DNA from: Arachis hypogaea
Lineage: Eukaryota > Streptophyta > Magnoliopsida > Fabales > Fabaceae
DNA length: 64,000 nucleotides
NCBI RefSeq assembly: GCF_003086295.3
Contig: NC_092048.1
Span: 104,176,112-104,240,111, forward strand
Direction of reading: 5' to 3'
Shown one piece after another: positions 6,743 through 54,730 of this stretch (position 1 is its first letter; every line of letters starts with the position of its first letter). Position numbers and translations under genes: made by a program. The notes under the pieces are model-generated. The model made no database searches, was not told the DNA's origin, and saw only the letters and a program-made list of their open reading frames with translations.

Positions 6743-6792
6743 GGTGGGTTGTCTCCCACCTAGCACTTTTAGTTAAAGTCCTTAAGTTGGAC
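6743..6792 (-). ncRNA. Two-hairpin module after the gag-position ORF of H
   Basis: Minus strand, 5' to 3': hairpin 1 has stem GTCC/GGAC (6792-6789 with 6781-6778) and loop aacttaa; a 17-nt spacer follows; hairpin 2 has stem GGTGGG/CCCACC (6760-6755 with 6748-6743) and loop agacaa. It starts 17 nt after the stop codon at 6810. The same arrangement occurs in D, A, B and C with changed but still paired stems. Confidence 0.7.
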
Positions 6793-6809: not shown

Positions 6810-8369
6810 TTATGGCGGCTTATGTTTAAATTCGTCTAAAAATCTCCACCAGTGCTTGAAATGCCAATAGCCTCCGGGGTCCCAAACCAAGCATGCAAAC
6901 CTTCTGAGTAGCTCCAAACAGATTTTCAGGCTCCTGGGACGACGAATGTCAGGATAGAGTCCAGGATTCCAAGCCTTGCTTTTAAATCCACCTCCGTCTT
7001 GATCTACATGTTTCCATTCGGGAGGTTTAAAAAGTAGAATCTCACCTTGGTGACCAAACGTTTTCCGTGATCCATGCAATTGAGCATGATACCAATCCGT
7101 GTACTTCGAGGTGAAGCGTGGAACCTTATTGAACCTTGTGCACCAGCTCTGAGTATGAGCCATTTCTCTCTTACTCTTAAAGCCGCAGAGAGCTCTAAGC
7201 TGGCCATCTGTTTCAAGCAAACCATATTCAAGTGAATAAGTAAAGTTATAAGTTAAGGATTGTACCCACTTGAAGCTTGTATTAGGTGGTAATGGCCTTG
7301 GGATAGGTGTTTTTGGTGGTTCTGCAAGTTCCATTTCGTTGTGCTCTTCTGTGAATTCCTCCACTTCTTTGCAAAGATCTTCAATTGTATCTGTGTCCTG
7401 GTCAGAGTCTTTTGTGTCTTCCTTATCACTTGAGTCATAGATTGGAGGTTGAGAGAAATCTACCTCTGCATCATCTTCATATTCACTTGGGGAAGATTCT
7501 TCGATCTCAGAGAATTCACTTGCGGATGCAAGTTCATCACTAAGAGAGCTAGACGTGTGACTATCACTATCGAGGGAATTTGTTTCTTGGATTATTCCGT
7601 CTGATTCTTCATAAACGACTTGCCTTGGAGAAATATCCTCCTTAGCATCAACTGTAGTCTCCTTGACGGCGTGTTCCTCAATTCTGGATTCCCATGGAGG
7701 TTCAGCATCTCTTAGATCTTCAACCAACTCTTCTTCTTGAGCGATGACAGCTTCTTCTACTTGTTCTAGTATGAATTCATTCTCTGTCTTATCCACTGGA
7801 GTTTCTGGTATCTCCTTCATGCTACGCTCTTCGTTAGACTTTTCACATGGGGCTGTGGCTGATCCTTGTGTATTTGAGCGCCTAGAAACCCATTGAATTA
7901 TTGCTTGCTCCAGTTGTTGAATGGTTGTTTGAAATTTATTTACTGTTTTCGTTAGGCGAACCTCTGCTTCTCGGGTTGCTGGACTTGGACATGACACAAA
8001 GGAAAGTGGTGGTGATTGGGAGCGATTGGATTGGCACTGGGGTAAGGAAGGATCATATGGTGGCGAATGGTGAAGAGAAGCTTGTGAGTGTGGTGGTTCG
8101 AGGTTATATTGAAAGGATGGTTTACATGCACGGGGTGGGGCTTGTTGGTAGTTACAAGGTTGTCCACCATATCTTTCAGCTGGGTATGCATTGTAGAATG
8201 GTCTTTGTCCAGGATATCTCGGAGGGTGTTGCTGCCAAAAGGGTTGATTAGATCCTCTTGGTTCCATCCATCTTTGATTGATCTGACCTTGATGCGCGTT
8301 CCTGCTGTAACTTCTATTTCCTTTAACAATATTAGAACCAAACTCAAAGCGAGAGGGGTGAGAGTTCAT
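6810..8369 (-). CDS. Element H gag-position protein, 519 aa, no recognised domain
   Basis: The first ATG after the primer site is at 8369. The reading frame is open further upstream, but those codons are a T-rich leader, so I start at MNSHPSRFEFG. Residues 1-130 are rich in Gln, Pro, Tyr and Asn (PRYPGQRPFYN, PHSQASLHHSPPYDPS). About 140-165 could form a short coiled coil (VNKFQTTIQQLEQAI). Residues 175-360 are strongly acidic. The last 140 residues are Trp-rich (WCTRFN, WYHAQLHGSRKTFGHQGE, CLVWDPGGYWHFKHWWRF). I see no Gag core as in A-D, no zinc knuckle and no protease. The frame is intact over 519 codons, although H lacks pol. The position says Gag substitute, but the protein itself I do not recognise. 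Confidence 0.65.
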   Translation of the reverse strand: MNSHPSRFEFGSNIVKGNRSYSRNAHQGQINQRWMEPRGSNQPFWQQHPPRYPGQRPFYNAYPAERYGGQPCNYQQAPPRACKPSFQYNLEPPHSQASLHHSPPYDPSLPQCQSNRSQSPPLSFVSCPSPATREAEVRLTKTVNKFQTTIQQLEQAIIQWVSRRSNTQGSATAPCEKSNEERSMKEIPETPVDKTENEFILEQVEEAVIAQEEELVEDLRDAEPPWESRIEEHAVKETTVDAKEDISPRQVVYEESDGIIQETNSLDSDSHTSSSLSDELASASEFSEIEESSPSEYEDDAEVDFSQPPIYDSSDKEDTKDSDQDTDTIEDLCKEVEEFTEEHNEMELAEPPKTPIPRPLPPNTSFKWVQSLTYNFTYSLEYGLLETDGQLRALCGFKSKREMAHTQSWCTRFNKVPRFTSKYTDWYHAQLHGSRKTFGHQGEILLFKPPEWKHVDQDGGGFKSKAWNPGLYPDIRRPRSLKICLELLRRFACLVWDPGGYWHFKHWWRFLDEFKHKPP

Positions 8370-8470
8370 GGTAGCAAATAAAGATAAACAGAAAAAAAAA
8401 ACAAAAATAAATAAACAAGCAAAAGAAAAATATTTACAATAACCAATAATAAGGCACACGTTAGCAGTTT

Positions 8471-11192: not shown

Positions 11193-13499
11193 TGATGCAC
11201 GGAAAACTTGTCTCTCAACAAATCTCCCTTCGGCAAGTGTACCGAATTTGTCGTCAAGTAAAAACTCACAATAGAGTGAGGTCGAATCCCACAGGGATTG
11301 ATTGATCAAGCAACTTTAATTAGAAGAATATTCTAGTTGAGCGAATCCAGAATTTGGGTTGAGAGTTGCAGAAAATAAAATGGCGGGAATGTAAATAACA
11401 GAAAAGTAAATGCTAGAATTAAAGGACTGGAAGTAAATGACTGCAAATAAATTGCAGAATTGTAAATGGGAATGGGGGATTTGCTCATAAAAGTAAATGG
11501 CAGAAATTAAAGAGAATGGGTAAGATCAGAGATGGGGAGTTCATTGGGCTTAGGAGATGTTGCAATTCTCCGGATCAAGTTCATTTTCATCTCTTCCTCA
11601 ATCAATGCACTCATTGATCTCCTTGGCAATCTTAAGTGATTGAATTACAATTTCTTGCAATTCAATCTCTCAAATCTTGATCAATAGCCAATTCCTTGGT
11701 CAATTGCTCATGAGAAGAGATGAAGTATAGTCACTGATTATACCACATGCATTTCCCAAATCAAGTATTGAGAGGGTTATAGTCACATACCCATCCAAAC
11801 CCAATTTGGTCCAGCATGAGAAAGCATTTCTAGCTTGATCTCTTCATTCCTCTTTCAAGGTTCAAAAGAGATCCAAGTTTGAATAGCTTCTCTTCCAAGA
11901 TAACTACTCAATTGGATGAAGATCGAATGCTTTCAAGTAAAATCAAGAGGAAAGATAGAAGAAGAATAATGAAAATTAGTATTGATCCATCAAATTACAA
12001 CAGAGCTCCCTAACCCAATGAAAGGGGTTTAGTTGTTCATAGCTCTTGAAAATGAAAACAAAGATGGAGAATACATCATAAAACTAGAAATTGCAAAGAA
12101 AGTAAAATACAAAGAGTAGTTCTCTTTTTCCCAGACTCCAGAACTTCTTCTCAATTCAAAGCTACTCCTATATATACTACTCTTCTCAGCTTCTAGTGTG
12201 ATTCTTCAAGTCTTGGGCCTTTGGATCTTGAGTTTGAAGCAGTTCCTTTCTTTATTTGGGCTTGGCTTTACATGCAGAGAGAAAGTGCGAAGTGGGCGGA
12301 GACTTTAGTTTAGGACGTTAGGGGTGTTAATATTTAGTGAAAATATAAGTTCGAGAACGTTAGTGACACTTAACATTGTCACTAACGTTCCAATGCACCC
12401 CTTTGCCTCACGTTAAAACCCACGTTAACTAGGTTAACGTGGCTTTTAATGTTGCCTTGTTAACCTTCGAGAACGTTAGTGACACTCAACATTGTCACTA
12501 ACGTTCCAGTGTGCCCCTTCTTGCTTTACGTTAAAGCCCACGTTAACTAGGTTAACGTGGCTTCTAACGTGACCCTTGCCATCCTTTGAGAACGTTAGTG
12601 ACATTCAACATTGTCACTAACGTTCCAATGTGCCCCTAGGTCTCACGTTAGAGTCCACGTTAACTAGGTTAACGTGGCTTCTAACGTGGCCATCTTTAGC
12701 CATCCCAACGTTAGTGACAATGTTGAGTGTCACTAACGTTGGCTCATCCTTCATTCCTCATCGTTAGCTTCCACGTTAACCAAGTTAACGTGGAAGTTAA
12801 CGTGACTCTTGGGGGTTGTGTGGTTGCTTCAACGTTAGTGACAATGTTGAGTGTCACTAACGTTGTCGACAACTCTTCATCCCTTACGTTAGTTCCCACG
12901 TTAACCAAGTTAACGTGGGAGTTAACGTGGTACTTTGCACTATAGGCCAACGTTAGTGACAATGTTGAGTGTCACTAACGTTGGCTTCTCTTCCCCCCTT
13001 AACGTTAGAGGACACGTTAACTAGGTTAACGTGGCTTCTAACGTGGCCACTTATGAGTAATTGCCAACGTTAGTGACAATGTTAAGTGTCACTAACGTTG
13101 GCTCAACTTCTCTTCTCCACGTTAGAGTTCACATTAACTTAGTTAATGTGACTCTCTAACGTGGGCATTGATGGCTTTTTTTTGAGAGTGTTATTGGCAA
13201 TCACTTTTCTCATTAACCTTGCAAGTTACCTCCCCTTTTCTTGCTTCCTTTTGGTCCTGAAATCAAGCAATAAAGTGCATCAAAGCTCTAGTCCAAGTCA
13301 TGAGTAATGCAACTTAATATTTGTTACTAAACTTATGCAAAATCCTCATGAAATTATGTAAAATGCACAATGTATGCTTGAATCAAGGCATAAGTGAATA
13401 TCTACCCAAAACTAGCTCATTTCCTAAAGAAATGCATGAAACTAACCTAAAAACAGTAAAGAAAAGGTCAGTGAAACTGGCCAAGATGCCCTGGCATCA
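11193..13499 (-). repeat. Element A 3' LTR, 2307 bp
   Basis: From tgatgcacgg to tggcatca. Minus-strand TATA box (tatatatagg) at about 12168-12180. Upstream of it, at 12356-13160, lies an array of about seven 116-124-bp units, each with a long inverted repeat around gttagtgac/gtcactaac and a short one of the cacgttaa/ttaacgtg type. A hairpin CTCAC/GTGAG lies at 11265-11280 in the downstream part. Confidence 0.93.
12356..13160 (-). repeat. Array of about seven ~119-bp units with paired palindromes in the U3 of element A
   Basis: aacgttagtgac starts at 12356, 12472, 12591, 12707, 12831, 12949 and 13065. Each time it is followed within 40 bp by its inverse gtcactaacgtt, then by a second inverted repeat such as cacgttaactaggttaacgtg. 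The same array is at about 31736-32550 in the 5' LTR. Confidence 0.85.
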
Positions 13500-13517
13500 C
13501 AACACCAAACTTAAAGC
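13500..13517 (-). promoter_or_regulatory. Element A plus-strand priming tract
   Basis: Next to the 3' LTR the minus strand reads ctttaagtttggtgttg, then the LTR start tgatgcc. The same tract precedes the 3' LTRs of B, C and G. It is G/T-rich rather than purely purine. Confidence 0.65.
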
Positions 13518-15100
13518 TTGCTTGTCCCTAAGCAAGTACTGGAACAAGAGAATGATGAATGGAATATCCAGAGGAATGAGTCATTCTTGTGGAAGTTATG
13601 TTACTGATTTTATGGTGGTTTCATGCATAGCAATTTAGGTTCATTCCATTACTGGCTTTCAGACCTTTATCATGTCCTAAAACACCCTCTTTGTTTATAT
13701 CCCATGAGACTTTTATTCATTGATCCTTTTATTGTTATTTCAAGGGTTGTTTGTGTTATTTAGGCTAAGTGCTCTATAAGGGGGCAACTCTTTAAGATAA
13801 GCTTTCAGCCCAACACTCCCGAACCAGTTGGTTCAAGGTGCTAGGTGTTGAGACACCCCTAAGGACTTACTCCCTCAAGCCTATCCCCCATACATACACA
13901 CTACAGGCATTTAGTTTATTTATTTTCTTTTCTTGAGACCTTGGTGTCCAGCACCTCTTTGGGTTACTAAGTGTTCTGTAGTGAAGGTTACTCTTGATAG
14001 TGGACTTTCAGTTGATAATCCCGAGTTAGTTAACCCAAGTTACCAAGTGATAAGGCACCCCTAAGAGCTTATTCATCCAAGTAGATCCCTCACACAGGAG
14101 CACCACAGACACTTGCCTCAAGATTAAAACCATTGATGCCTAGCCTTATTGCTTACTCTTTTTCTTTTGTTTTTCACTTCCATTGTTCTTTCCCTTTTCT
14201 CTTCTTAGGATCTTGTTATTAACTTAGTCTCATGAGTGTATCCAAAGCACAGTATTCAGGCCAGATAATTGTCATCCCAGCCTTGTGGTTGAACCAACTT
14301 AGCTAACTTATGACTACCCCAAAGATTCATGAATGCACTTCCACAATATGAACTCTACTCTGGTCTTTTGAAAACAATCATTCTCTTTTTATTTGATTTA
14401 AAGGGACAAGCATACAAGTAAGTTAAGTGATGGTGCAGTAACATAAAGACTAATGCACATAGACCTATTCAGAACTTAAAAGACAGAATTTAAAAAGGGT
14501 TCAACTATGAGTAACTACAAATCAAAAGTGCATTCGGACTTCCAACTTTCAACAATTCCGAGTACAATGGAATTAGGTAACAATACAACCTTCGGGTGAT
14601 GATCTCTGGTCCCCCTCTCTCTTTGTCATCATCCTAGTTTTTGCTGCCTCGCTTCTTTGGGTGAAGGTGCACCATTTCCTTATAAGATTCCTGCAAGGTT
14701 ACTGGAAGTTGCTTGTTCCCAAAGCACTTGAGACATAGTTAGCTTACATGTATGCTTGTGCCTCTCGAACTCAATTTGGTGTGTGAACACCAAACTTAGT
14801 TCTTTGCCCAGTACAAAATATTGCATATATGCAGAGACCCTCATATCTTGTTATCAGCAAAGCAATGATCACCTATGGTCTAACTACATCTAAGTGGTTT
14901 CTCTTGATTGGATGGAGCTAGCGATGTTCTTTTGGAGTGGAGTGTAATTCTTACCAATGTCCTTTAGTGGAACACCAAACTTAGAACTACACTATCACTC
15001 TTGGATTGTTCTGGTGTGGAACACCAGACTTAGCTCCTTACAATACAGGGGAAACAACTTTGTGATTTTTAATGAAATAAAGATGAAAGTGAAACTACCT
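13518..15100 (-). other. Element A 3' untranslated region
   Basis: No gene supported. It holds two imperfect copies of a roughly 200-bp unit (about 13755-13920 and 13955-14115), each with cacccctaag and a nearby cac(t)acagg/cacagacac end. It also has three copies of aacaccaaacttag-like sequence (14786, 14971, 15020) that resemble the priming tract. Confidence 0.55.
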
Positions 15101-15103
15101 GAG

Positions 15104-15153
15104 GTTGGGTTGCCTCCCAACAGAGCGCTCTTTTATCGTCGCTAGCTCGACGA
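15104..15153 (-). ncRNA. Two-hairpin module after element A integrase
   Basis: Minus strand: hairpin 1 has stem TCGTCG/CGACGA (15153-15148 with 15141-15136), loop agctag; hairpin 2 has stem GTTGGG/CCCAAC (15121-15116 with 15109-15104), loop aggcaa. Spacer 14-16 nt depending on stem length. It starts about 25 nt after the stop codon at 15179. Confidence 0.7.
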
Positions 15154-15178: not shown

Positions 15179-16558
15179 TTACTCTGGGGTTTTCCCCATG
15201 TTGCCCAGATAATGCTTGAGTCTTTGTCCATTCACTGTAAAAGTCCTCTCTGAACCTTCATCCGTGATTTCGATGTGGCCATATGGTGATACTTTTGTAA
15301 CCATGAAAGGTCCGGACCACCTTGACTTGAGTTTTCCTGGGAACAGCCTTAATTTAGAATTGTAAAGGAGTACTCGCTGCCCTTTTTCGAAACTCCTGGG
15401 TGCCAGATGCATGTCATGTTTTCTCTTTGCCTTCTCTTTATACATCTTAGTGTTTTCATAGGCTTGTGACCTGAATTCCTCCATCTCTTGTAGCTGCAAG
15501 ATCCTTTTTGCACCAGCAGCAATGCTGTCAAAATTTAGTATCTTGATAGCCCAAAGAGCTTTGTGTTCCAGCTCTAGTGGTAAATGACAAGCCTTCCCAT
15601 AGACTAGTTGATATGGAGACATTCCAAGTGGAGTTTTGAATGCTGTTCTGTATGCCCAAAGAGCATCATCCAACTTCTTCAACCAATCCTTTCTAGATGC
15701 GTCCATAGTCTTTTCCAGGATCCTCTTCAGCTCTCTGTTGGATATCTCAGTTTGCCCACTTGTTTGAGGATGGTAAGGTGTGGCTACTTTATGTTTTACC
15801 CCATATCGTAAGAAGAGAGCTTCTAGTGGTTTGTTACAAAAGTGGCTCCCTCCATCATTGATAAGGGCTCTTGGGACTCCAAACCGGCTAAAGATATTCT
15901 TCCTGAGGAAGTTCATGACTACCTTGTTATCATTAGTTGGGGTTGCAATAGCCTCTACCCACTTGGAAACATAATCCACTGCTACCAGGATGTACTTGTT
16001 TGCATATGAGGTTGGGAATGGTCCCATGAAATCAACTCCCCACACATCAAACAGTTTCAGTTCCAAGATGAAATTTTGTGGCATGGCATTTCTTTTGGGC
16101 AGGTTTCCAGATCTTTGGCATTCATTGCAGCTTTTTACTAGTTCCTTGGCATCCTTGAAAAGGGTGGGCCAAAAGAATCTGCTTTGTAACACCTTTACAG
16201 TAGTTCTGTCCCCTCCAAAGTGCCCGCCATAGCATGAACCGTGGTAGTTCCACAGGACTTCTCTCCCTTCCTCTTCCGAAACACATCTTCTAAGAATTCC
16301 ATCTGAACATTTCTTGAAGAGATATGGCTCGTCCCAGACAAAGTATTTTGCATCATTCATGAGCTTCCTCTTTTGATGTTTATTGATCCCTGGGGGTAAT
16401 GCCCCAGTTGCCTTGAAATTTGCAATATCTGCGAACCATGGTGCTTTGTGAACTGTCATCAACTGCTCATCAGGGAAGAGCTTGTTCACATTTGTATCAT
16501 TTTCTCCACCTTGATCGGGAGGGATTCTGGATAGGTGATCTGCCACCTTGTTCTCCAC
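15179..16558 (-). CDS. pol (integrase): Element A integrase, full domain set, same frame as the upstream polymerase but cut off by a stop
   Basis: 459 codons, open to the normal end. Zinc-binding part: H106, H113, then C144 and C147 (CNECQRSGN). Catalytic core: D176 in GVDFMGP, D235 in INDGGSHF, E271 in [10 protein letters not shown], so all three acidic residues are kept. The C-terminal module [14 protein letters not shown] (404-418) is the GPY/F-type region seen in gypsy integrases. In the family this enzyme inserts the cDNA into the genome. Here it is the downstream part of pol: it is in frame with the reverse transcriptase at 16634-18289, from which it is separated by a TAA (16631-16633) and a TGA (16559-16561). 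The first Met shown is not a natural start. Confidence 0.9.
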
Positions 16559-21978: not shown

Positions 21979-21996
21979 CAACACCAAACTTAAATT
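21979..21996 (-). promoter_or_regulatory. Element B plus-strand priming tract
   Basis: Minus strand atttaagtttggtgttg directly before the LTR start tgatgagcgg, as in A, C and G. Confidence 0.65.
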
Positions 21997-23129: not shown

Positions 23130-23419
23130 AGTCCACCTTAGTGATGTCCTTGAGCTCTTCTATGTCTCTTCCTTGTCTTTGCTGCTCCTCCTTCATTGCT
23201 TTTAGATCTTCTCTGATTTCATGAAGGATGATGGAGTGCTCCTGATGTTCCACCCTTAGTTGCTTCCAATAATTGTGTGGAAGAAAATGAATCCCCTGAG
23301 GTATCTCAGGGATCTCTTGATTTGCAGTCAAATGTTCTACCACTGAGCTATAGACCCTTGATGGAAGCTTTTGTCTTCCCTTTCCTCTTTCTAGAGGTTT
23401 CTCTGGCCTTAGGTGCCAT
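23130..23419 (-). pseudogene. Element B third-ORF remnant with large internal deletion
   Basis: ATG at 23419 begins MAPKARETSRKRKGKTKAS, matching the N-terminus of the C third ORF (MAPKTGESSRKGKGRTKAS). After about 19 codons the match stops and 49 nt of tRNA-Cys sequence follow. Then the C-terminal part resumes: EIPEIPQGIHFLPHNYWKQLRVEH and HSIILHEIREDLKAM. Some 280 codons of the conserved domain are missing, and a smaller deletion of about 14 codons lies before LRVEH. The coding frame is closed by a TAG within the tRNA piece (start ...IKGL, stop). The gene is dead in B. Confidence 0.8.
23309..23357 (-). tRNA. Truncated tRNA-Cys(GCA) copy embedded in the B third ORF
   Basis: The minus strand of these 49 nt begins gggtctatagctcagtggta and continues through a D-arm and an anticodon arm with anticodon GCA (23325-23323). 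This is the 5' two thirds of plant tRNA-Cys, with about three differences from the form I remember. The T-arm and the 3' acceptor strand are absent, so it is not functional. The right-hand junction falls in a stretch, gagatccc, common to tRNA and element, which hints at joining by short homology. Confidence 0.8.
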
Positions 23420-23950: not shown

Positions 23951-24085
23951 GATGCTCCTCCAGGGTGTGATTTTTCTTCTGCTGTTTTTGATTCCGTTTT
24001 TGATTTTTTTGTTTATTTTGTGACTCCACATGATCATGAACCTAAGAAAACATGAAAAACAATAAAAATAAGAATTAGATAAACA

Positions 24086-24131
24086 TTGGGTTACCTCCCA
24101 ACAAGCGCTTCTTTAATGTCAATAGCTTGAC
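24086..24131 (-). ncRNA. Two-hairpin module after element B gag-pro
   Basis: Minus strand: hairpin 1 GTCAA/TTGAC (24131-24127 with 24122-24118), loop gcta; 16-nt spacer; hairpin 2 TTGGG/CCCAA (24101-24097 with 24090-24086), loop aggtaa. Starts 19 nt after the stop codon at 24151. Confidence 0.7.
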
Positions 24132-24150: not shown

Positions 24151-26478
24151 TCACAGATGTGCAGAGCTTTGTTGAGACTCTCCAACACCAAACTTAGAGT
24201 TTGGATATCGGAGTTCAACACCAAACTTAGAGTTTGGTTGTGGCCTCCCAACACCAAACTTAGAGTTTGACTGTGGGGGCTTTGGTTGACTCTGCTTGGA
24301 GAGAAGCTTTTTCTGCTTCCTCTCCATGGTTGCAGAGGGAGATCCTTGAGTTTTAAACACAAGGGAGTCCTCATTCCATTGAAGGACTATTTCACCTCTG
24401 TCAACATCAATCACAGCTCTTGCTGTGGCCAGGAAAGGTCTTCCTAGGATGATGGATTCATCCTCTTTCTTTCCAGTATCCAGGACTATGAAATCAGCAA
24501 GGATGTAAAGGCCCTCAACTTTTACCAATACATCTTCTATGTGTCCATAAGCCTGTCTTTTTGAGCTGTCTGCCATCTCTAGTGAGATTTTAGCAGCTTG
24601 CACCCCATAGATTCCCAGTTTCTCTATTACAGAGAGGGGCATGAGGTTTATACCTGAACCAAGGTCACACAGAGCTTTGAAGATCATGGTGCCTATGGTA
24701 CAAGGTAGTATGAACTTTCCAGGATCCTGTCTCTTCTGAGGTAATGTCAGTTGATCCAGATCACTTAGTTCATTGATGAACAAGGGAGGTTCAACTTCCC
24801 AAGCATCAATGCCAAATAATTTGGCATTCAGCTTCATGATTGCACCAAGAAACTTGGCATTTTGCTCTTCAGTGACATCCTCATTCTCTTCAGAAGAGGA
24901 ATACTTATCAGAGCTCATGAAGGGCATAAGGAGGTCCAATGGAATCTCTATGGTCTCTAGATGAGCCTCAGAGTCCTTTGGTTCCCCAGAGGGAAGCTCC
25001 TTATTGATCACTGGACGTCCCAGGAGGTCTTCCTCCTTGGGATTCACGTCCTCTCCTCTCCTCATAGGTTCGGCCATGGCGCTTATGTCAATGGCCTTGC
25101 ACTCTCCTTTTGGATTCTCTTCTGTATTGCTTGGGAGAGTACTAGGAGGGATTTCAGTGATCCTTTTACTCAGCTGGCCCACTTGTGCTTCCAGATTTCT
25201 AATGGAAGACCTTGTTTCATTCATGAAACTTACAGTGGCCTTAGATAGATCAGAGACTAGATTTGCTAAATTAAAAGCATTTTGTTCAGAGTTCTCTGTC
25301 TGTTGCTGAGTTGATGATGGAAAAGGCTTGCTATTGCTAAACCTGTTTCTTCCACCATTATTAAAGCCTTGTTGAGGCTTTTGATCCTTCCATGAGAAAT
25401 TTGGATGATTTCTCCATGTTGAGTTATAGGTGTTTCCATAAGGTTCACCTAAGTAATTTACCTCTGCTATTGCAGGGTTCTCAGGATCATAGGCTTCTTC
25501 TTCAGAAGATGCCTCTTGAGTACTATTGGATGCAGCTTGCATTCCATGCAGACTCTGAGAAATCATATTGACTTGCTGAGTCAATATTTTGTTCTGAGCC
25601 AATATGGCATTCAGAGTATCAACTTCAAGAACTCCCTTCTTCATAGGCGTCCCATTATTCACAGGATTCCTTTCAGAAGTGTACATGAACTGGTTATTAG
25701 CAACCATGTCAATGAGTTCTTGAGCTTCTGCAGGCGTTTTCTTTAAGTGAATGGATCCACCTGCAGAGGTGTCCAGTGACATCTTTGATAGCTCAGATAA
25801 ACCATCATAGAATATATCCAGGATGGTCCATTCTGAAAGCATGTCAGAAGGACACTTTTTGGTCAACTGTTTGTATCTTTCCCAAGCTTCATAGAGAGAT
25901 TCACCTTCTTTCTGTCTGAAGGTTTGAACATCAGCTCTAAGCTTGCTCAGCTTTTGAGGAGGAAAGTACTTGGCTAAGAAAGCCGTGACCAGCTTATCCC
26001 AAGAGTTCAGGCTGTCTTTGGGTTGAGAATCCAACCATAATCTAGCTCTGTCTCTTACAGCAAAAGGGAAAAGCATAAGCCTGTAGACTTCAGGATCTAC
26101 TCCATTAGTCTTAACAGTATCACATATCTGCAAAAATTCAGTCAAGAACTGAAAAGGATCTTCAGATGGAAGTCCATGAAACTTGCAGTTCTGCTGCATT
26201 AGAGAAACTAATTGAGGTTTCAGCTCAAAGTTGTTTGCTCCAATGGCAGGAATGGAGATGCTTCTTCCATGTAAATTGGAATTAGGTGCAGTAAAGTCAC
26301 CAAGCATCCTCCTTGTATTATTATTATTTTCGGCTGCCATCTCCTCTGCCTGTTCGAAAATTTCTGAAAGGTTATCTCTGGATTGTTGTATTTTAGCTTC
26401 TCTTAATTTTCTCTTCAGAGTTCTTTCAGGTTCTGGATCTGCTTCCACAAGAATGTTCTTATCCTTGCTTCTGCTCGT
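24151..26478 (-). pseudogene. gag-pro: Element B Gag-protease, long open frame with a lost start codon
   Basis: Open for 775 codons from 26478, where the ATG of element C (MSRSKDNN) reads ACG. The longest frame shown by standard rules begins at a GTG (26448). Counting from there: Gag core about 70-235 (ANNFELKPQLVSLMQQN, LMLFPFAVRDRARLWLDSQP, AFLAKYFPPQKLSKLRADVQ, LYEAWERYKQLTKKCPSDM), possible coiled coil 275-300, aspartic protease 575-700 with CDLGSGINLM (594-603) and ILGRPFLATA (667-676), and three NSKFGV repeats at 728-754. No zinc knuckle is visible. Gag forms the particle and the protease matures it. There is no pol behind it. Apart from the start codon no lesion is visible, in contrast to C. 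A non-ATG start or an upstream start is possible. Confidence 0.8.
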
Positions 26479-30051: not shown

Positions 30052-30056
30052 CCTCC

Positions 30057-36552: not shown

Positions 36553-37441
36553 TGATGAATGTAAATATTCTCATGCCGGTTATAAACTAGTGATAAATCC
36601 GATCGTGAGTATAGTCTAACCAACACACGAATACCGCATCAAACAATTCTAAAATCTATGACCGAGAGTATTGATCCCGGGTCGTTCTCCCTAGGAATTG
36701 CTTTAGAATGTGCGTCATTGATTAGGAAAGCTTTTATGGTTTTGAGAATTGGTGCAAGAATTTAAACTAGCAAGGCAATCAACAATTAATCGAAATTAAA
36801 GCCTTGGCCAAGGGTTAGCATTGGAAGTTCCATCATTATTGTCTCCTTCAATTATTATAAGAATTGATTGTTGCTTCACTTAGTTAACCCCCTAACAATG
36901 GAGGAAAGTCAAATGAGAGTAACTAACTTGAGTCACAAGTCCTAGTCTCACCCTAGGGAAGTCTAGCTTTAGTGCACTCCAACTTAATTAGCAATTCTCA
37001 ATTCATAATCTTCAATTGATATCAACTATTCAAGTGTCTCCAATAACTCAACCCCTAAGCCAAGTGAGAGAAATCTACTCCATAGCTAAGGTTGTCATTA
37101 TCACAAACATTTGGTAGGCAATTATAGAAAACATGATGCAATTGAGAGAAGAGAATTGAATCAAAGCTATCTAATTCAAACAATCATCAACAATCAAACA
37201 ATTGAATAAAACCTCAATTTATTAATCCAAATTCAAAGTAACGAAGCATACCAAATCTAGATCTAAGGAATTGAATCAAAAGAACATCAATTAAGAGTAG
37301 AAGAAGAGTAGATCTACACTTGTAGCAAAATAAAAAGTTAATTGTCAATAGATCTCACCAAGAATTCCAAGGATACTTGCAATGGAGGATGAAAACCTAG
37401 AGAGAAGTTGGAGCTTCTCTCTCTAGAAAATAAAATGTAAC
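36553..37441 (-). repeat. Element D 3' LTR, outer part
   Basis: Collinear with 59034-59922. Ends at the insertion of C, with duplication gtaac at 37437-37441. Confidence 0.92.
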
Positions 37442-39068
37442 TGATGAGCGGATAATTTATACGCTTTTTGTCATTGTTTTTAGTATGTTTTTAGTAGAAT
37501 CTAGTTACTTTTAGGGATGTTTTCATTAGTTTTTATGTTAAATTCACATTTCTAGACTTTACTATGAGTTTCTGTGTTTTTCTGTGATTTCAGGTATTTT
37601 CTGGCTGAAATTGAGGGAATTGAGCAAAAATCAGATTCAGAGGTTGAAGAAGGACTGCTGATGCTATTGGATTCTGACCTCCCTGCACTCAAAATGGATT
37701 TTCTGGAGCTACAAAACTCGAAATGGTGCGCTTCCAATTGCGTTGGAAAGTAGACATCCAGGGATTTCCAGCAATATTTAATAGTCCATACTTTGCCCAA
37801 GTTTAGATGATGCAAACTGGCTTCAATGCCAGCTCTCTGCCTAATTCTGCCGTCCAGCGCCAGAAACAAGTTGCAAAGTGGAGTTCAACGCCCAAACTGG
37901 CAAAAAAGCTGGCGTTCAACTCCAAGAATGACCTCTCCATGTGTAGACTTCAAGCTCAGCCCAAGCACACACCAAGTGGGCCCCGGAAGTGGATTTATGC
38001 ATCAATTACTTACTTCTGTAAACCCTAGTAGCTAGTTTATTATAAATAGGACTTTTTACTATTGTATTAGACATCTTTTGATCATCTTTGGATGCCTAGT
38101 TCTTAGATCATGGAGGCTGGCCTCTCGGCCATGCCTGGACCTTTCACTTATGTATTTTCAACGGTAGAGTTTCTACACTCCATAGATTAAGGTGTGGAGC
38201 TCTGCTGTTCCTCAAAGATTAATGCAAAGTACTACTGTTTTTCTATTCAACTCAACTTATTCCGCTTCTAAGATATTCATTCGCACTTCAACATGAATGT
38301 GATGAATGTGACAATCATCATCATTCCCTATGAACGCGTGCCTGACAACCACTTCCGTTCTACCTTAGATTGAATGAGTATCTCTTAGATCTCTTAAACA
38401 GAATCTTCGTGGTGTAAGCTAGATTGATGGCGGCATTCATGAGAATCCGGAAAGTCTAAACCTTGTCTGTGGTATTCTGAGTAGGATTCTCAGATTGAAT
38501 GACTGTGACGAGCTTCAAACTTGCGATTGCTGGGCATAGTGATAGACGCAAAAGGAGGGTGAATCCTATTCCAACATGATCGGGAACCTCAGATGATTAG
38601 CCGTGCTGTGACAGAGCATTTGGACCATTTTCACAAGAGGAGGGGATGTAACCATTGACAACGGTGATGCCCTTGCATAAAGCCAGCCATGGAAAGGAGT
38701 AAGACTGATTGGATGAAGACAGCGGGAAAGCAGAGATTCAGAGGAACGAAAGCATCTCTACACGCTTATTTGAAATTCTCACCAATGAATTATATAAGTG
38801 TTTCTATCCCTATTTTCTGTTTAATTAGTATTATTTTCGAAAACTCCATAATCAATTATTATCCGCCTGACTGAGATTTACAAGTTGACCATAGCTTGCT
38901 TCATACCAACAATCTCCGTGGGATCGACCCTTACTCACGTAAGGTTTATTACTTTGACGACCCAGTGCACTTGCTGGTTAGTTGTATCGAAGTTGTGACA
39001 AATTATGAATTGAGATTAGAGCACCAAGTTTTTGGAGCCATTACCAGAGATCACAATTTCGTGCACCA
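37442..39068 (+). repeat. Element C 5' LTR, 1627 bp
   Basis: From tgatgagcgg to cgtgcacca. Palindromes of the ggcgttcaacgcc family at about 37820-37925, TATA box tataaata at 38041-38048, hairpin CCTTAC/GTAAGG with loop tcac at 38929-38944. Confidence 0.94.
38041..38048 (+). promoter_or_regulatory. Element C LTR TATA box
   Basis: tataaata, about 120 bp after the palindromes. The same box is at 47135-47142 in the 3' LTR and inverted in both B LTRs. Confidence 0.6.
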
Positions 39069-40993: not shown

Positions 40994-43326
40994 ATGAGCA
41001 GGAGCAAGGACAATAATATTCTTGTTGAAGCAGATCCAGAACCTGAAAGGACTCTGAAGAGGAAACTAAGAGAAGCTAAATTACAACAATCCAAAGATAA
41101 CCTTTTAGAAATTTTCGAACAGGAAGAGGAGATGACAGCCGAAAATAATAATAATGCAAGGAGGATGCTTGGTGACTTTACTGCACCAAATTCCAATTTA
41201 CATGGAAGAAGCATCTCCATTCCTACCATTGGAGCAAACAACTTTGAGCTGAAACCTCAGCTAGTTTCTCTGATACAGTAGAACTGCAAGTTTCATGGAC
41301 TTCCATCTGAAGATCCTTTTCAGTTCTTAACTGAATTCTTGCAGATCTGTGATACTATTAAGACTAATGGAGTAGATCCTGAAGTCTACAGGCTCATGCT
41401 TTTTCCATTTGCTGTAAGAGACAGAGCTAGAATCTGGTTGGACTCTCAACCTAAGGATAGTTTGAACTCTTGAGATAAGCTGGTCACGGCTTTCTTAGCC
41501 AAGTTCTTTCCTCCTCAAAAGCTGAGCAAGCTTAGAGTGGATGTTCAAACCTTCAAACAAAAAGATTGTGAATCCCTCTATGAAGCTTGGGAAAGATACA
41601 AACAGCTGACCAAAAAGTGTCCTTCTGACATGCTTTCAGAATGGACCATCCTGGATATATTCTATGATGGTTTATCTGAGTTATCAAAGATGTCATTGGA
41701 TACTTCTGCAGGTGGATCCATTCACCTAAAGAAAATGCCTCCAGAAGCTCAAGAACTCATTGACATAGTTGCTAATAACCAGTTCATGTACACTTCTGAA
41801 AGGAATCCTATGAATAATGGGACGCCTATGAAGAAGGGAGTTCTTGAAATTGATACTCTGAATGCCATATTGGCTCAGAACAAAATATTGACTCAGCAAG
41901 TCAATATGATTTCTCAGAGTCTGAATGGAATGCAAGCTGCATCCAACAGTACTCAAGAGGCATCTTCTGAAGAAGAAGCTTATGATCCTGAAAACCCTGC
42001 AATAGCAGAGGTAAATTATATGGCTGAACCTTATGGAAACACCTATAACCCATCATGGAGAAATCATCCAAATTTCTCAAGGAAGGATCAAAAGCCTCAA
42101 CAAGGCTTTAATAATGGTGGAAGAAACAGGTTTAACAATAATAAACCTTTCCCATCATCCACTCAGCAACAGACAGAGAATTCTGAACAAAATACCTCTA
42201 ATTTAGCAAACTTAGTCTCTGATCTGTCCAAGGCCACTGTAAGTTTCATGAATGAAACAAGGTCTTCCATTAGAAATTTGGAAGCACAAGGGGGGCAGCT
42301 GAGTAAAAGGGTCACTGAAATCCCTTCTAGTACTCTCCCAAGTAATACAGAAGAAAATCCAAAAGGAGAGTGCAAGGCCATTGAATTAATCACCATGGCC
42401 GAACTTGTGAAGGAAGGAGAGGACGTGAATCCCAAGGAGGAAGACCTCCTGTGACGTCCAGTGATCAATAAGGAGCTTCCCTTTGAGGAACCAAAGGAAT
42501 CTGAGACTCATCTAGAGACCATAGAGATTCCATTGAATCTCCTTATGCCATTCATGAGCTCTGATGAGTATTCATCTTCTGAAGAGAATGAGGATGTTAC
42601 TGAAGAGCAAGCTGCCAAGTTTCTTGGTGCAATCATGAAGCTGAATGCCAAATTATTTGGCATTGAAACTTGGGAAGATGAACCTCCCTTATTCACCAAT
42701 GAACTAAGTGATCCGGATCAACTGACATTGCCTCAGAAGAAATAGGATCCTGGAAAGTTCTTAATACCTTGTACCATAGGCACCATGATCTTTAAGGCTC
42801 TGTGTGACCTTGGTTCAGGAATAACCCTCATGCCCCTCTCTGTAATAGAGAAACTGGGAATCTTTGGGGTACAAGCCACTAAAATCTCATTAGAGATGGC
42901 AGACAATTCAAGAAAATAGGCTTATGGACAAGTAGAGGACGTGTTAGTAAAGGTTGAAGGCCTTTACATCCCTGCTGATTTCATAGTCCTAGATACTGGG
43001 AAGTATGAGGATGAATTCATCATCCTTGGAAGACCCAACCCTTCCTAGCCATAGCAAGAGCTGTGATTGATGTGGACAGAGGAGAATTGATCCTTCAATT
43101 AAATGAGGACAACCTTGTGTTTACAACTCAAGGATCTCTCTCTGCATCCATGGAGAGGAAGCATAAAAAGCTTCTCTCAAAGCAGAGTCAAACAAAGCCC
43201 CCACAGTCAAACTCTAAGTTTGGTGTTGGGAGGCCACAACCAAACTCTAAGTTTGGTGTCAAACCCCCAAAACCAAACTCTAAGTTTGGTGTTGGGGAGT
43301 CTCAACAAAGCTCTGCACATCTGTGA
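40994..43326 (+). pseudogene. gag-pro: Element C gag-pro, broken
   Basis: ATG at 40994 (MSRSKDNNILVEADPEPERT). Collinear with the B protein but interrupted: TAG at 41279 (B has Gln), TGA near 41472 (B has Trp in NSWDKL), TGA near 42452, TAG near 42743, TAG near 42917, and a frameshift near 43035 in the ILGRP block. Between stops long frames remain (41537-42454, 42461-42745, 43063-43326). Gag core, CDLGSG protease motif and the C-terminal NSKFGV repeats (43207-43290) are all recognisable. It could not make a full Gag-protease. Confidence 0.9.
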
Positions 43327-43345
43327 GGCTCCATGAGAGCCCACT

Positions 43346-43391
43346 GTCAAGCTATTGACATTAAAGAAGCACTTGTTGGGAGGCAACCCAA
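43346..43391 (+). ncRNA. Two-hairpin module after element C gag-pro
   Basis: Hairpin 1 GTCAA/TTGAC (43346-43350 with 43355-43359), loop gcta; 16-nt spacer; hairpin 2 TTGGG/CCCAA (43376-43380 with 43387-43391), loop aggcaa. Starts 19 nt after the stop codon. Kept intact although the gag before it is destroyed. Confidence 0.7.
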
Positions 43392-43519
43392 TTTTTATTT
43401 AATTATATTTCTATTAGTTATATGTCTTTATAGGTACATGATCATGTGGAGTCACAAAATAAATCAAAAATTTGAGAACAGAATCAAAAACAGCAGAAGA
43501 AAAATCACACCCTGGAGGA

Positions 43520-46555: not shown

Positions 46556-48162
46556 TGATGAGCGGTTAATTTATACGCTTTTTGGCATTGTTTTTAGTAT
46601 GTTTTTAGTAGAATCTAGTTACTTTTAGGGATGTTTTCACATTTCTGGACTTTACTATGAGTTTGTGTGTTTTTCTGTGATTTCAGGTATTTTCTAGCTG
46701 AAATTGAGGGACTTGAGCAAAAATCAGATTCAGAGGTTGAAGAAGGACTACTGATGCTGTTGGATTCTGACCTCCCTGCATTTAAAATGGATTTTCTGGA
46801 GCTACAGAACTCGAAATGGTGCGCTTCTAAATGCGTTGGAAAGTAGACATCCAGGGCTTTCCCGCAATATATAATAGTCCATACTTTGCCCAAGTTTAAA
46901 GGACGCAAACTGGCATTCAATGCCAGCTCTCTGCCCAATTCTGGCGTCCAGCGCCAGAAACAAGTTGCAAAGTGGAGTTCAATGCCCAAACTGGCACAAA
47001 AGCTGGCGATCAACACCAAGAATGACCTCTCCACTTGTAGACTTCAAGCTCAGCCCAAGCACACACCAAGTGGGCCCCGGAAGTGGATTTATGCATCAAT
47101 TACTTACTTCTGTAAACCCTAGTAGCTAGTTTATTATAAATAGGACTTTTTACTATTATATTAGACATCTTTTGATCATCTTTGGACGCCTGGTTCTTAG
47201 ATCATGGGGGCTGGCCTCTCAGCCATGCCTGGACCTTTCACTTATGTATTTTCAACGGTAGAGTTTCTACACTCCATAGATTAAGGTGTGGAGCTCTGCT
47301 GTTCCTCAAAGATTAATGCAAAGTACTACTGTTTTTCTATTCAACTCAACTTATTCCGCTTCTAAGATATTCATTCGCACTTCAACATGAATGTGATGAA
47401 CGTGACAATCATCATCATTCCCTATGAACGCGTGCCTGACAACCACTTCCGTTCTACCTTAGATTGAATGAGTATCTCTTAGATCTCTTAAACAGAATCT
47501 TCGTGGTGTAAGCTAGATTGATGGCGGCATTCATGAGAATCCGGAAAGTCTAAACCTTGTCTGTGGTATTCCGAGTAGGATTCTGGGATTGAATGACTGT
47601 GACGAGCTTCAAACTCGCGATTGCTGGACGTAGTGACAGACGCAAAAGGAGGGTGAATCCTATTCCAGCATGATCGGGAACCTCAGATGATTGGCCGTGC
47701 TGTGACAGAGCATTTGGACCATTTTCACAAGAGGAGGGGATGTAACCATTGACAACGGTCATGCCCTTGCATAAAGCCAGCCATGGAAAGGAGTAAGACT
47801 GATTGGATGAAGACAGCGGGAAAGCAGAGATTTAGAGGAACGAAAGCATCTCTATACGCTTATCTGAAATTCTCACCAATGAATTACATAAGTGTTTCTA
47901 TCCCTATTTTCTGTTTAATTAGTATTATTTTCAAAAACTCCATAATCAATTATTATCCGCCTGACTGAGATTTACAAGGTGACCATAGCTTGCTTCATAC
48001 CAACAATCTCCGTGGGATCGACCCTTACTCACGTAAGGTTTATTACTTGGACGACCCAGTGCACTTGCTGGTTAGTTGTATCGAAGTTGTGACAAATTAT
48101 GAATTGAGATTAGAGCACCAAGTTTTTGGAGCCATTACCAGAGATCACAATTTCGTGCACCA
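46556..48162 (+). repeat. Element C 3' LTR, 1607 bp
   Basis: Same ends as 37442-39068. Palindromes at about 46910-47015, TATA box 47135-47142, hairpin 48023-48038. Confidence 0.94.
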
Positions 48163-48167
48163 GTAAC

Positions 48168-48792
48168 TAATTGTCCTAACACTCCTGATCCTTGGTCTTC
48201 TTAAGCTTTTTCCTCCAAAATCTGCTCCAAAAAAGAGCTTGGGAACCCCCTGAAATCGCTGGGCACGTGTTTCATTTAAAAAATCATGTGCGCACATCGA
48301 CGCGTACGCGCACTGCATGCGTACGCATCCTTGGGTTCTTTTGCGATCTGCGCGTAGGCGTACGGTGCGCGCGAGCGTCATAAGGGATATGGACCAGCCA
48401 TATAGGCACGCCGGCTCCTCACTCGGCTCCACTGCGCTGGCTCTGGGTGAGCGCATCCACGCGTACGCGCATTGTGCGCGTGCGCGTGCATGTCCAAACT
48501 TCCATTCTTTAATTTGTTTCATGCTCCTTCCATTCATGCATGCTTCCTTCATTCCTTTTGGCCATTTTTGCCCTATAACTTCTGACATCACTTAACAAAC
48601 GGATCAAGGCATCTAATGGTAATAGAGGAGGATTACAATATCTCAATTTTGATGCAAAAGAAGCATATTTTTATCTATGAGGTAAAATGGGAAAGAGACA
48701 CAATCATGCAGTTTTATATAAATAAGTGTGGAAGATCATTGATAAAACCCTTAGATTCTATGTATGATAAACCCTAAAAACGGGGTTTTTCA
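48168..48792 (-). repeat. Element D 3' LTR, inner part
   Basis: Collinear with about 59953-60578. Contains acgcgtacgcgc palindromes (about 48290-48490). Compared with the 5' LTR about 30 bp (near 59923-59952) are missing right beside the C insertion. Confidence 0.9.
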
Positions 48793-53191: not shown

Positions 53192-53241
53192 GGTGGGGTG
53201 TCTCCCACCTAGCACTTTTGTTTAATGTCCTTAAGTTGGAC
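53192..53241 (-). ncRNA. Two-hairpin module after element D integrase
   Basis: Minus strand: hairpin 1 GTCC/GGAC (53241-53238 with 53230-53227), loop aacttaa; 17-nt spacer; hairpin 2 GGTGGG/CCCACC (53209-53204 with 53197-53192), loop agacac. Starts 10 nt after the stop codon at 53252. Confidence 0.7.
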
Positions 53242-53251
53242 TTTCACTTGT

Positions 53252-54730
53252 TCATTGCTCTTTGCCAAGAGGTGCATCTTCCAAAAGGAATAACTCAATC
53301 TCTTTGTTGCTCTTCATTTGTTCACCATAATACAACTTGAGACGGTGCCCATTGACCTTGAAGATATCCGAACTTGAGGGATGGCACAAATGGTAAACCC
53401 CATAGGGTTCCGCCTTCACTACTTGATATGGGCCTTCCCATTTTGACTTTAGTTTACCGGGAAACAATCTCAATCTAGAATTGTAAAGAAGGACAAGATC
53501 ACCGGCCTTGAATTATTTGCCTCTTATGTTCCTATCATGGACGGCTTTCATTTTTTCCTTGTAAAGTCTAGAGTTCTCATAAGCTTCAAGCCTCAAACAT
53601 TCCAACTCCGCTAATTGTAGCTTCCTCTCAATTCTGGCTCCACCCAAACTCGGATTACACTCCTTGATGGCCCAATACGCCTTGTGCTCTATTTTCACCG
53701 GCAAATGCCAAGCTTTGCCGTATACCAACCGAAAGGGACTCATGCCAATTGGCATTTTGTATGCTGTTCGGTAGGCCCATAATGCATCGGTGAGCTTGGC
53801 ACTCCAATCTTTCCTATTGGGTTTCAGAATCCTTTCCAAGATGCATTTAATCTCCCGATTGGAAATCTCGGCTTGGCCGTTTGTTTGTGGGTGGTAGGCC
53901 GTGGCTACTTTATGCATGATGCCATATTTCCTCATTAGTCCGTCCATTCTTTTGTTGCAAAAATGTGAACCTTAGTCGCTCATGATTGCTCGTGGCGACC
54001 CAAATCTACAAATGATATTATTTCTCGCAAAAGAAAGGACCACATTAGCATCATCCGTGCGGGTGGGTATTGCATCCACCCATTTGGACACATAATCAAT
54101 GGCGAGTAGAATGTAGAGGAAACCATTAGAATCTGGGAATGGCCCCATGAAGTCAATTCCCCACACGTCAAAAATCTCACAAAATAGCATAGTTTGTTGG
54201 GGAATTTCATCCTTCTTAGAGATATTACCAAATCTAATGCATTGAGAACAAGATTTATAAAAATGAGAAGAGTCCTTGAAAAGAGTTGGCCACCAAAAAC
54301 CACAATCTAGGATTTTTCTTGCCGTTCTTTGAGGTCCAAAGTGGCCTCCTCCTTCGGAGGAGTGGCAAGCTTCCAAGATTGAGTGGAATTCGGTTTGTGG
54401 AATGCACCTCCGAATTACTTGATCTGCCCCACATCTCCAAAGGTATGAGTCATCCCACACATAGTATTTGGATTCGCTTTTTAGCTTATCCCTTTGATGT
54501 TTGGAGAGATTAGGAGCGAAGGAGCGAGATACTAAGTAATTGGCGATTGGTGCATACCAAGGAATGGTTTCCGAGATTGCATGCAAGCCCTCAAAGGGAA
54601 ATGAATCATTGATAGGAGTAGTATCGCCTTTTGTATGTTCAATGCGACTTAGATGGTCCGCCACTAGGTTTTGCGTACCACTCCTATCCTTGATTTCCAA
54701 GTCAAACTCTTGCAACAATAAAACCTATCT
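53252..54730 (-). pseudogene. pol (integrase): Element D integrase
   Basis: One frame with stops near 54729 (RLIR-stop-VLLLQEF), at 53972 and at 53513. Zinc-binding part: CHSSEGGGHFGP with C...C in CSQCIRFGN. Catalytic core: D in GIDFMGPF, second D in AIMSD directly before a stop replacing the following Gly, and E in [11 protein letters not shown]-terminal [16 protein letters not shown] module, then a tail to 53252. Athila-type, like A. The stops make it inactive, though the catalytic residues themselves are present. Confidence 0.87.

What the first reader, a model, noticed from the sequence alone, without database searches (positions are those of the whole stretch)
43346..43391. Conserved two-hairpin RNA module just after the last gag/pol stop codon in five elements, with covarying stems
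Modules at 6743-6792 (H), 15104-15153 (A), 24086-24131 (B), 43346-43391 (C) and 53192-53241 (D). Hairpin 1 begins 10-26 nt after the stop codon and hairpin 2 follows after 14-17 nt. The fourth pair of hairpin 1 is A-T in B/C, G-C in A and C-G in H/D, so three different Watson-Crick pairs at one place. In hairpin 2 the second pair is T-A in A and G-C in H/D. Loops are conserved (gcta in hairpin 1 of A, B, C; agrcaa-like in hairpin 2). It stays intact in C although the gag before it is destroyed, and it lies between gag/pol and the third ORF, or the 3' UTR in A. Possible roles: recoding or readthrough, RNA export or packaging, start of a subgenomic RNA. I know of no description, but cannot search.
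Basis: partly seen in the sequence, partly recalled or inferred. Interest (0 to 1): 0.87.

Follow-up and report, generated by a model that had tools for sequence, protein, structure and literature searches.

The report
Stop-codon RNA hairpins in peanut retrotransposons
Right after the stop codon of their last large gene, Athila-type jumping elements of the peanut genome carry a short two-hairpin RNA signal, present in tens of thousands of copies and kept even in defective elements, which probably protects or marks the element's RNA.

Summary
All five modules are at the stated places. The window lies in a held 2.56-Gb genome, peanut by the names of its protein relatives. In 28 stretches (240 kb) I found 22 more modules, in 18 of 28. 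A near-exact pattern has 68,359 matches genome-wide, 0 in the reversed control. Over 12 families hairpin 2's second pair is always paired and occurs as U-A, G-C, C-G and A-U; hairpin 1's fourth pair occurs as A-U, C-G and G-C but is C·A in one family. Hairpin 2 is well supported, hairpin 1 moderately. A U-rich tract usually follows. In 24 of 33 copies a stop of a frame of at least 60 codons lies 9-27 nt upstream, against 221 of 6000 random positions, whichever ORF ends there. Between helper-type and defective elements it is one of few shared islands. Best reading: a stop-proximal cis-acting RNA element, most likely shielding genomic RNA from nonsense-mediated decay; packaging and export remain rivals. 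Other plant species were not tested. No description was found in the library searched.

The parts
43324..43326 (+). C: stop codon of the (broken) gag frame, 19 nt before hairpin 1
   Evidence: sequence; distance
43346..43359 (+). C: hairpin 1 (GTCA / AGCTAT / TGAC)
   Evidence: CM hit 71.9 bits over 43344-43393
43360..43374 (+). C: linker between the hairpins (AGCACT variant of the AGCGCT hexamer)
43375..43392 (+). C: hairpin 2 (6 bp, outer pair G-U, loop AGGCAA)
43393..43452 (+). C: U-rich tract (T 0.44 over the 80 nt from 43392)
24151..24153 (-). B: gag stop TGA, 19 nt before hairpin 1
24118..24131 (-). B: hairpin 1
24103..24117 (-). B: linker with AAGCGCTT
24085..24102 (-). B: hairpin 2
   Evidence: CM hit 72.8 bits
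24025..24084 (-). B: U-rich tract (T60 0.57)
15179..15181 (-). A: stop TAA of the integrase frame, 27 nt before hairpin 1
15138..15151 (-). A: hairpin 1 (stem extends to 15136-15153)
15122..15137 (-). A: linker with AGAGCGCTCT
15104..15121 (-). A: hairpin 2
   Evidence: CM hit 70.4 bits
15044..15103 (-). A: U-rich tract (T60 0.42), begins with donor-like CAG|GTAGTT
6810..6812 (-). H: stop TAA of an ORF without Pfam match, 17 nt before hairpin 1
6778..6792 (-). H: hairpin 1 (GTCC / AACTTAA / GGAC)
6743..6760 (-). H: hairpin 2
   Evidence: CM hit 36.9 bits
6683..6742 (-). H: U-rich tract (T60 0.60)
53252..53254 (-). D: stop TGA of the integrase frame, 10 nt before hairpin 1
53227..53241 (-). D: hairpin 1
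53192..53209 (-). D: hairpin 2
   Evidence: CM hit 34.4 bits
53132..53191 (-). D: U-rich tract (T60 0.48), begins with donor-like ATG|GTAAAA
30546..30584 (-). A: end of 5' LTR and primer-binding site, one of the few other islands shared with B/C
13495..13535 (-). A: polypurine tract region and start of 3' LTR, shared with B/C

Best explanation
The module is a cis-acting RNA element of Athila-type LTR retrotransposons: stop codon, a gap of 9-27 nt, hairpin 1, an A-rich linker with an AGCGCU-like hexamer, hairpin 2 with the nearly fixed core GGGAGRYAACCC, and usually a U-rich tract. Shown here: it is a conserved RNA structure (compensatory changes, in hairpin 2 above all); it lies directly after the last large ORF whichever ORF that is; and it is kept in elements without pol (B, C) or without recognisable gag and pol (H). 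[quoted passage not shown] Placed right at the terminating ribosome, the element would keep UPF1 off and so keep the full-length RNA stable for translation and mobilisation. It would work like the stability element after the gag stop of Rous sarcoma virus, with the U-rich tract recruiting a polypyrimidine-binding protein and the hairpins setting the distance or acting as a roadblock. Protein partners and the decay step are untested.
For: Structure: hairpin 2 over 13 sequences has 100% paired cells, 7 cells with changes on both sides and a covariation score reached by 0 of 500 shuffles (pairs with double change: 33 of 500 reach it; pair types: 2 of 500). Both stems over 9 sequences: 96% paired, 4 pairs with double changes, 0 of 500 for each (pair types 13 of 500). 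Pairs p4 (AU 6, CG 4, GC 1, CA 1) and q2 (UA 6, GC 4, CG 1, AU 1) exceed all 5000 shuffles. Genome counts for q2: U-A 38,470 and C-G 9,023 of 68,359; a slightly different pattern with q2=A has 4,637, all but 12 of the roughly 100 listed rows with T opposite (tallied by eye). Stop coupling: 24 of 33 copies have a stop of a frame of 60 or more codons 9-27 nt upstream, random positions 221 of 6000; the ORF ending there is integrase, gag or the H ORF. Cis role: A and B/C share gag coding sequence, PBS, PPT region, module and a few short stretches only; between H and D the module has the highest identity, 54 of 59 nt, the LTRs about 70%. U-rich tract: T 0.38-0.60 in the 60 nt after hairpin 2 in 15 of 16 copies, 0.13-0.32 upstream, and 0.47-0.62 in six more. 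Precedents: the RSV element directly after the gag stop is position-dependent and works through PTBP1 (PMC4764554, passages); in the plant virus TCV a pyrimidine-rich stretch after the coat-protein stop and a readthrough structure after the p28 stop gave NMD resistance (PMC6277124, passages including the abstract).
Against: No RNA-level data of any kind. In TCV the pyrimidine-rich stretch is unstructured, and a mutation that made a stable hairpin abolished resistance, while turning 19 pyrimidines into purines did not; here two hairpins come first. The RSV element is about 400 nt, this one about 120 nt. Nine of 33 copies do not show the close stop: it is farther off or the frame runs open into the module. 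p4 of hairpin 1 is C.A in the F4 family, and the pair outside hairpin 1 is unpaired in 4 of 12 families and not beyond shuffles. Most positions are fixed in sequence, so a sequence-specific protein site would explain much of the conservation. Families are related, so shuffle counts overstate independence. Only one genome was sampled. Between H and D the module's identity differs little from that of the PBS stretch (P 0.033).
Confidence: 0.4

Rival explanations
1. Packaging or dimerisation signal: Gag of the autonomous relatives recognises the module in cis, so that defective elements carrying it are co-mobilised.
For: Kept in B and C (no pol) and H (no recognisable gag or pol) beside PBS and PPT region. 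Ty3 packaging and localisation need both UTRs and POL, and its proposed dimer site is a short GC-rich palindrome in a hairpin (PMC11381356, passages). The linker has self-complementary AGCGCT in A, B and other families.
Against: Does not explain why the module stays 9-27 nt from a stop codon after different ORFs. The hexamer is AGCACT, not self-complementary, in C, L145 and one L150 copy, and AGTGCT, pairing with itself only through G-U, in the H/D group. In Ty3 the dimer site lies near the 5' end.
Confidence: 0.2
2. Nuclear export element for unspliced RNA, working like the transport elements of mouse IAP and MusD.
For: Structured, downstream of the last large ORF, kept in defective elements. 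[quoted passage not shown] A splice-donor-like site follows hairpin 2 within 5 nt in 7 of 12 families, so some of these RNAs may need export unspliced.
Against: No reason for a fixed stop distance. [quoted passage not shown] No likeness was tested.
Confidence: 0.17
3. Splicing or ORF3-expression element: hairpin 2 abuts a 5' splice site and the U-rich tract is the start of an intron or a polypyrimidine tract for a subgenomic RNA.
For: Donor-like sites at +3 to +5 after hairpin 2 in F2, F3, D, D2, F6, A and F11, each within the top 0.6-3.4% of background (the donor matrix was recalled). U-rich tract in 15 of 16 copies. In B and C a TTCTTAG|G or TTTATAG|G sequence follows.
Against: No such site in F1, F10, F7, F5 and two of three F4 copies; the third has one at +9. 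No third ORF was found in A. No transcript data.
Confidence: 0.12
4. Conserved primary sequence only (a protein or DNA site), the pairing being incidental.
For: Pairs p1-p3 and q3-q6 hardly vary; only 14 genome matches have a base other than T at q3 in the pattern used, against 68,359 with T in a somewhat looser pattern.
Against: q2 occurs as all four Watson-Crick pairs and p4 as three; with the 3' partner slid by 1-3 columns only 18-58% of cells pair.
Confidence: 0.08

Closest known systems
[quoted passage not shown]
   Same: Lies immediately after a gag stop codon in retroelement RNA, has pyrimidine-rich parts, action depends on the distance from the stop (PMC4764554, passages).
   Different: About 400 nt, in an animal retrovirus, function tested; this module is about 50 nt plus a U-rich tract, has a fixed two-hairpin core, and its function is untested.
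TCV stop-proximal NMD-resistance segments
   Same: Plant system; sequences directly after stop codons protect reporter RNAs with long 3' UTRs; one of them is a structured readthrough element (PMC6277124, passages).
   Different: The other is unstructured, and the carmoviruses compared there share little sequence in that place; here sequence and structure are conserved over many families.
ENE / triple-helix element of the plant retrotransposon Evade
   Same: RNA structure between the last ORF and the 3' LTR of a plant LTR element, with U-rich sequence (PMC12501189, passages).
   Different: ENE has U-rich internal loops within a stem; the module has none in its folds, and Rfam shows no match.
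Sirevirus conserved non-coding motifs
   Same: Short conserved palindromic or inverted-repeat motifs in non-coding regions across divergent plant LTR elements (PMC2829016, passages).
   Different: Ty1/copia; motifs sit in the LTRs and around the PPT, not after the pol stop.
IAP RTE and MusD MTE transport elements
   Same: Cis-acting RNA structures that serve the full-length RNA (PMC12786077, passages).
   Different: Act in nuclear export in mouse; no sequence or structural likeness was tested.
Non-autonomous Athila families of Arabidopsis
   Same: Pol-less elements with gag, as B and C (PMC2410132, passages).
   Different: The passages seen mention no RNA element after the stop.

Membership tests
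RSE-like stop-proximal stability element | Located directly after the stop codon of gag or of the last large ORF | tested here: met
   9-27 nt in 24 of 33 copies, after three kinds of ORF; random positions 221 of 6000
RSE-like stop-proximal stability element | Pyrimidine-rich stretch close to the stop | tested here: met
   T60 0.38-0.60 after hairpin 2 in 15 of 16 copies; it is U- rather than CU-rich and starts after the hairpins
RSE-like stop-proximal stability element | Protects RNA from UPF1-dependent decay | not testable with these tools
   needs reporter assays
Conserved structured RNA | Compensatory base changes in the stems | tested here: met
   hairpin 1 weaker because family F4 lacks p4
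[quoted passage not shown]
   no U-rich internal loop in the folds; no Rfam match at gathering in the window, nor an ENE match at E up to 5 for the C and D regions
Recoding (readthrough/frameshift) stimulator | A downstream ORF is reached in frame | tested here: not met
   next in-frame stop after 6 (A, D), 19 (B), 44 (H), 73 (C) codons; frameshift was not tested separately
Retroviral-type dimer initiation site | Self-complementary sequence kept in all families | tested here: inconclusive
   AGCGCT in F1 (B), F4, F5, F7, F10, F11 and A; AGTGCT in the H/D group; AGCACT in C, L145 and one L150 copy
Athila-lineage Ty3/gypsy elements (host of the module) | Gypsy-type pol, PF20167-type third ORF, PBS as in Calypso/Diaspora | tested here: inconclusive
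   Pfam RT, IN, gag, PF20167; PBS TGGCGCCGTTGCCGGGGA in A-D, one mismatch in H; the lineage name and the match of this 18-mer to tRNA-Asp are recalled (PMC1142308, section 9, says tRNA-Asp for Diaspora and Calypso without my checking letters); no tree was built

The most novel reading that the evidence does not exclude
A plant retrotransposon lineage carries its own stop-codon-proximal NMD shield: a compact two-hairpin plus U-rich RNA device, placed with ribosome-scale precision after whatever ORF is last, inherited by defective elements as a passport for survival of their RNA. With an extrapolated 2 x 10^5 copies it would be one of the most numerous structured RNA elements in the peanut genome, and any host gene with a copy after its stop would be shielded too.
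Probability: 0.35. Interest if true: 0.85.

Novelty: new variant of a known kind. Interest (0 to 1): 0.72.

Why it matters
How plant LTR-retrotransposon RNA, with its far-off poly(A) site, escapes quality control, is exported and is chosen for packaging is mostly open; [quoted passage not shown] Here is a small, precisely placed, well-conserved RNA element that can be tested in a simple leaf reporter assay. It would also give annotators a marker for the end of the last ORF in Athila-type elements, even in elements that have lost gag and pol.

Tried and rejected
Dimerisation through the linker palindrome: attractive in A and B, but AGCACT and AGTGCT variants break or weaken it. Recoding: no ORF is reached in frame. 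Third-ORF element: none found in A. ENE: no U-rich internal loop, no Rfam match. Splice donor after hairpin 2: 7 of 12 families. With the covariance model the 80 listed viral stretches (picked because they hold TGGGAGGCAACCCA) reach at most 22.5 bits, against 27.5-77.7 for the 27 modules; nine of the 27 trained the model. The other 40 stretches, L121 and L122 were not scanned. The G-C count for q2 was not obtained because the tool did not complete, the exact A-U count was not asked, so no full independence table exists. Single-sequence folding was little help. From memory I believe GGGAGGCAACCC also occurs in gypsy elements of other plants; no call supports it. The string GGGAGGCAACCC occurs in one paper, on EHEC prophages by its title (listing only). 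Papers on Bagy-2 splicing and on peanut repeats are not held.

Rows dropped or special: L123-L130 (copies of the C family) were not used in counts. L143 holds two copies with the same module; one search uses one copy per family. Families are my own grouping by upstream ORF and module letters. The F4 representative (L142) has a q4 mismatch; searches use L144 and L131 instead. In the matrix scan one weak extra match (14.8 bits, window 18974, inside the A element) is above the shuffled maximum of 11.0 and is no module. In L162 the script placed hairpin 1 oddly, so its stop distance is unsure. The rows were tallied by eye. The sampled stretches start at round coordinates that I chose, not at random ones.

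Full report
What the window is. The window is C13:104176112-104240111 of a held 2.557-Gb assembly; homologues of an ORF in it that carry organism names are from Arachis, so I treat it as peanut. Self-comparison shows nested LTR elements: H (LTR similarity 784-1576 with 9220-10014, 97%), A (11193-13499 and 30573-32879, 98%), B inside A (20306-21979 and 28379-30052, 99%), C (37442-39068 and 46556-48162, 96%) inside the 3' LTR of D (36553-37442 with 59034-59923, and 48166-48792 with 59950-60578, 97 and 94%). Pfam finds integrase, reverse transcriptase and RNase H in A, integrase in D, gag in B, and PF20167 in the third ORFs of C, D and H; the H ORF 6810-8459 has no match.

The observation. In hairpin 1 the fourth pair is A-T, G-C or C-G; hairpin 2 has six pairs in all five, the outer one G-U in B and C. 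On five sequences the covariation of hairpin 2 is not beyond chance (51 of 500 shuffles), and single-strand folding is only mildly better than shuffles.

Conserved island. Compared piece by piece at E 0.01, A and B/C share gag coding sequence, a 65-nt stretch before the reverse transcriptase (A-B only), the LTR end with the primer-binding site, the PPT region with the LTR start, short matches between that region of A and the gag-tail repeats of B and C, and the module. H and D share parts of their LTRs and of the 3' region at about 70%, a few shorter stretches at 85-90%, the LTR end with the PBS at 82%, and the module at 91.5% over 59 nt, the highest identity (54 of 59; P 6.6e-5 if it evolved at 70%, but 0.033 against the 82% of the PBS stretch). 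H shares no such match with A or B at that threshold, so the two groups of modules are linked through motif and structure rather than through a strong alignment. The module thus behaves like the other signals that an RNA must carry in cis to be mobilised, and it is kept in B and C (no pol) and in H (no recognisable gag or pol).

Genome-wide sample. I took 20 stretches of 10 kb, one per chromosome, and 8 of 5 kb, at round coordinates of my choice. A position matrix found 22 modules in 240 kb, in 18 of 28 stretches, with scores of 34-57 bits; the best in a block-shuffled 200 kb was 11.0, and one non-module match in the window reached 14.8. A covariance model from nine sequences finds the same 22 and the five of the window at 27.5-77.7 bits; the only other match up to E 1 has 10.2. 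Extrapolated, that is about 2 x 10^5 copies. A near-exact pattern has 68,359 matches and none when read backwards.

Where it sits. Of the 22 sampled modules, 6 follow an integrase end, 7 a B-type gag end, 6 an H-type ORF end, and 3 had no coding match within 400 nt; of these three, L153 and L155 have gag/protease sequence further upstream and L145 none on its strand. All 6 integrase ends related to A or D that I saw in the sample have it. One other gypsy element (L149: RVP_2, zinc knuckle, integrase 27-30% alike to A and D) has none; that is a single negative case. A stop of a frame of at least 60 codons lies 9-27 nt before hairpin 1 in 24 of 33 copies (22 sampled, 6, 5 in the window), against 221 of 6000 random positions in the sampled stretches. 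Among them are frames of 1195 (L131), 883 (L153), 991 (L155), 791 (B), 569 (H) and 459 (A) codons. In 9 copies the stop is farther off (56-420 nt) or the frame runs open into the module (L145, L152, L164). In B-type copies a second, overlapping frame ends 9 nt before the hairpin, the gag frame 19 nt before it; in L137 only that second frame is near.

Structure test. Twelve families, one sequence each: hairpin-2 pair q2 is U-A in 6, G-C in 4, C-G in 1 and A-U in 1, always paired; p4 of hairpin 1 is A-U in 6, C-G in 4, G-C in 1 and C.A in 1; both exceed all 5000 shuffles. The pair outside hairpin 1 is paired in 8 of 12 and not beyond shuffles (0.25), and q1 is borderline (0.085). With the tool's own counts: hairpin 2 over 13 sequences 100% paired and 0 of 500 shuffles; both stems over 9 sequences 96% and 0 of 500; slid controls 18-58%. 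Genome counts for q2: 38,470 U-A, 9,023 C-G and 4,637 with A, mostly opposite T. Exceptions exist: copies related to F4 have A.G (L162, L163) and H-type copies have A.C (L161, L164). Families are related and counts are of sequences, not events; I judge by eye that at least five double changes are needed. Hairpin 2 is thus well supported, hairpin 1 moderately.

What follows the hairpins. The next 60 nt are U-rich (0.38-0.60) in 15 of 16 copies, against 0.13-0.32 before the module; one copy (L131) has 0.30. Seven of 12 families also have a donor-like G|GTA within 5 nt of hairpin 2. An earlier paper reports that the short region after the pol stop of soybean Diaspora, translated, gives a predicted transmembrane segment broken by two stops (PMC1142308, section 9 read); my guess is that this could be such a U-rich tract.

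Mechanism. Any role must explain three facts: conserved structure, retention in defective elements, and a fixed distance to a stop codon that belongs to different ORFs. Packaging and export explain the first two. A role at translation termination explains all three, and protection from nonsense-mediated decay is the one with close precedents, in Rous sarcoma virus (PMC4764554, passages) and in a plant virus (PMC6277124, passages). That long 3' UTRs trigger this decay in plants I take from the title of a reference listed there. The TCV finding that a stable hairpin abolished protection in one of its two elements speaks against it; the finding that a readthrough structure protected speaks for it. 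I give it 0.4, packaging 0.2, export 0.17, splicing or ORF3 expression 0.12.

Novelty. Rfam has no match at the module (for the C and D regions at E up to 5, where only one weak unrelated match each appears), and the paper searches that could have shown a description found none. Most subscription papers are not in that library, so this is no proof that none exists.

Noticed in passing
window 23288-23357 (-): A tRNA-Cys-like sequence (Rfam tRNA 30.6 bits; anticodon GCA read by eye from the alignment) sits in B where B lacks about 0.9 kb of the third ORF that C has.
   Followed up: partly
window 19826-19929 and 25837-25944 (+): Rfam snoR71 (RF00097) matches lie antisense inside the gag ORFs of A and B; that Rfam family may itself contain a retrotransposon gag fragment.
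   Followed up: no
window 6810-8459 (-): H-type elements carry a 549-aa ORF right after the PBS in place of gag/pol, with no Pfam match and 21 homologues, the named ones all from Arachis; six of 22 sampled modules follow this ORF type.
   Followed up: partly
window 43200-43310 (+) and the matching part of B: Repeats of the type CCAAACTCTAAGTTTGGTGTT, each an inverted repeat, in the gag tail just before the stop; similar letters occur next to the PPT (AAGTTTGGTGTTGTGATG).
   Followed up: no
window 18310-18374 (-) and 24392-24456 (-): A 65-nt stretch 80% alike between A (before the reverse transcriptase) and B (gag tail), near where B departs from the gag-pol layout.
   Followed up: no
L153:2665-2714, L159 and L160 near hairpin 1 at 1548 (-): Copies with hairpin 2 changed at two neighbouring pairs together (C-G and A-U instead of G-C and U-A), on two different hairpin-1 backgrounds.
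   Followed up: partly
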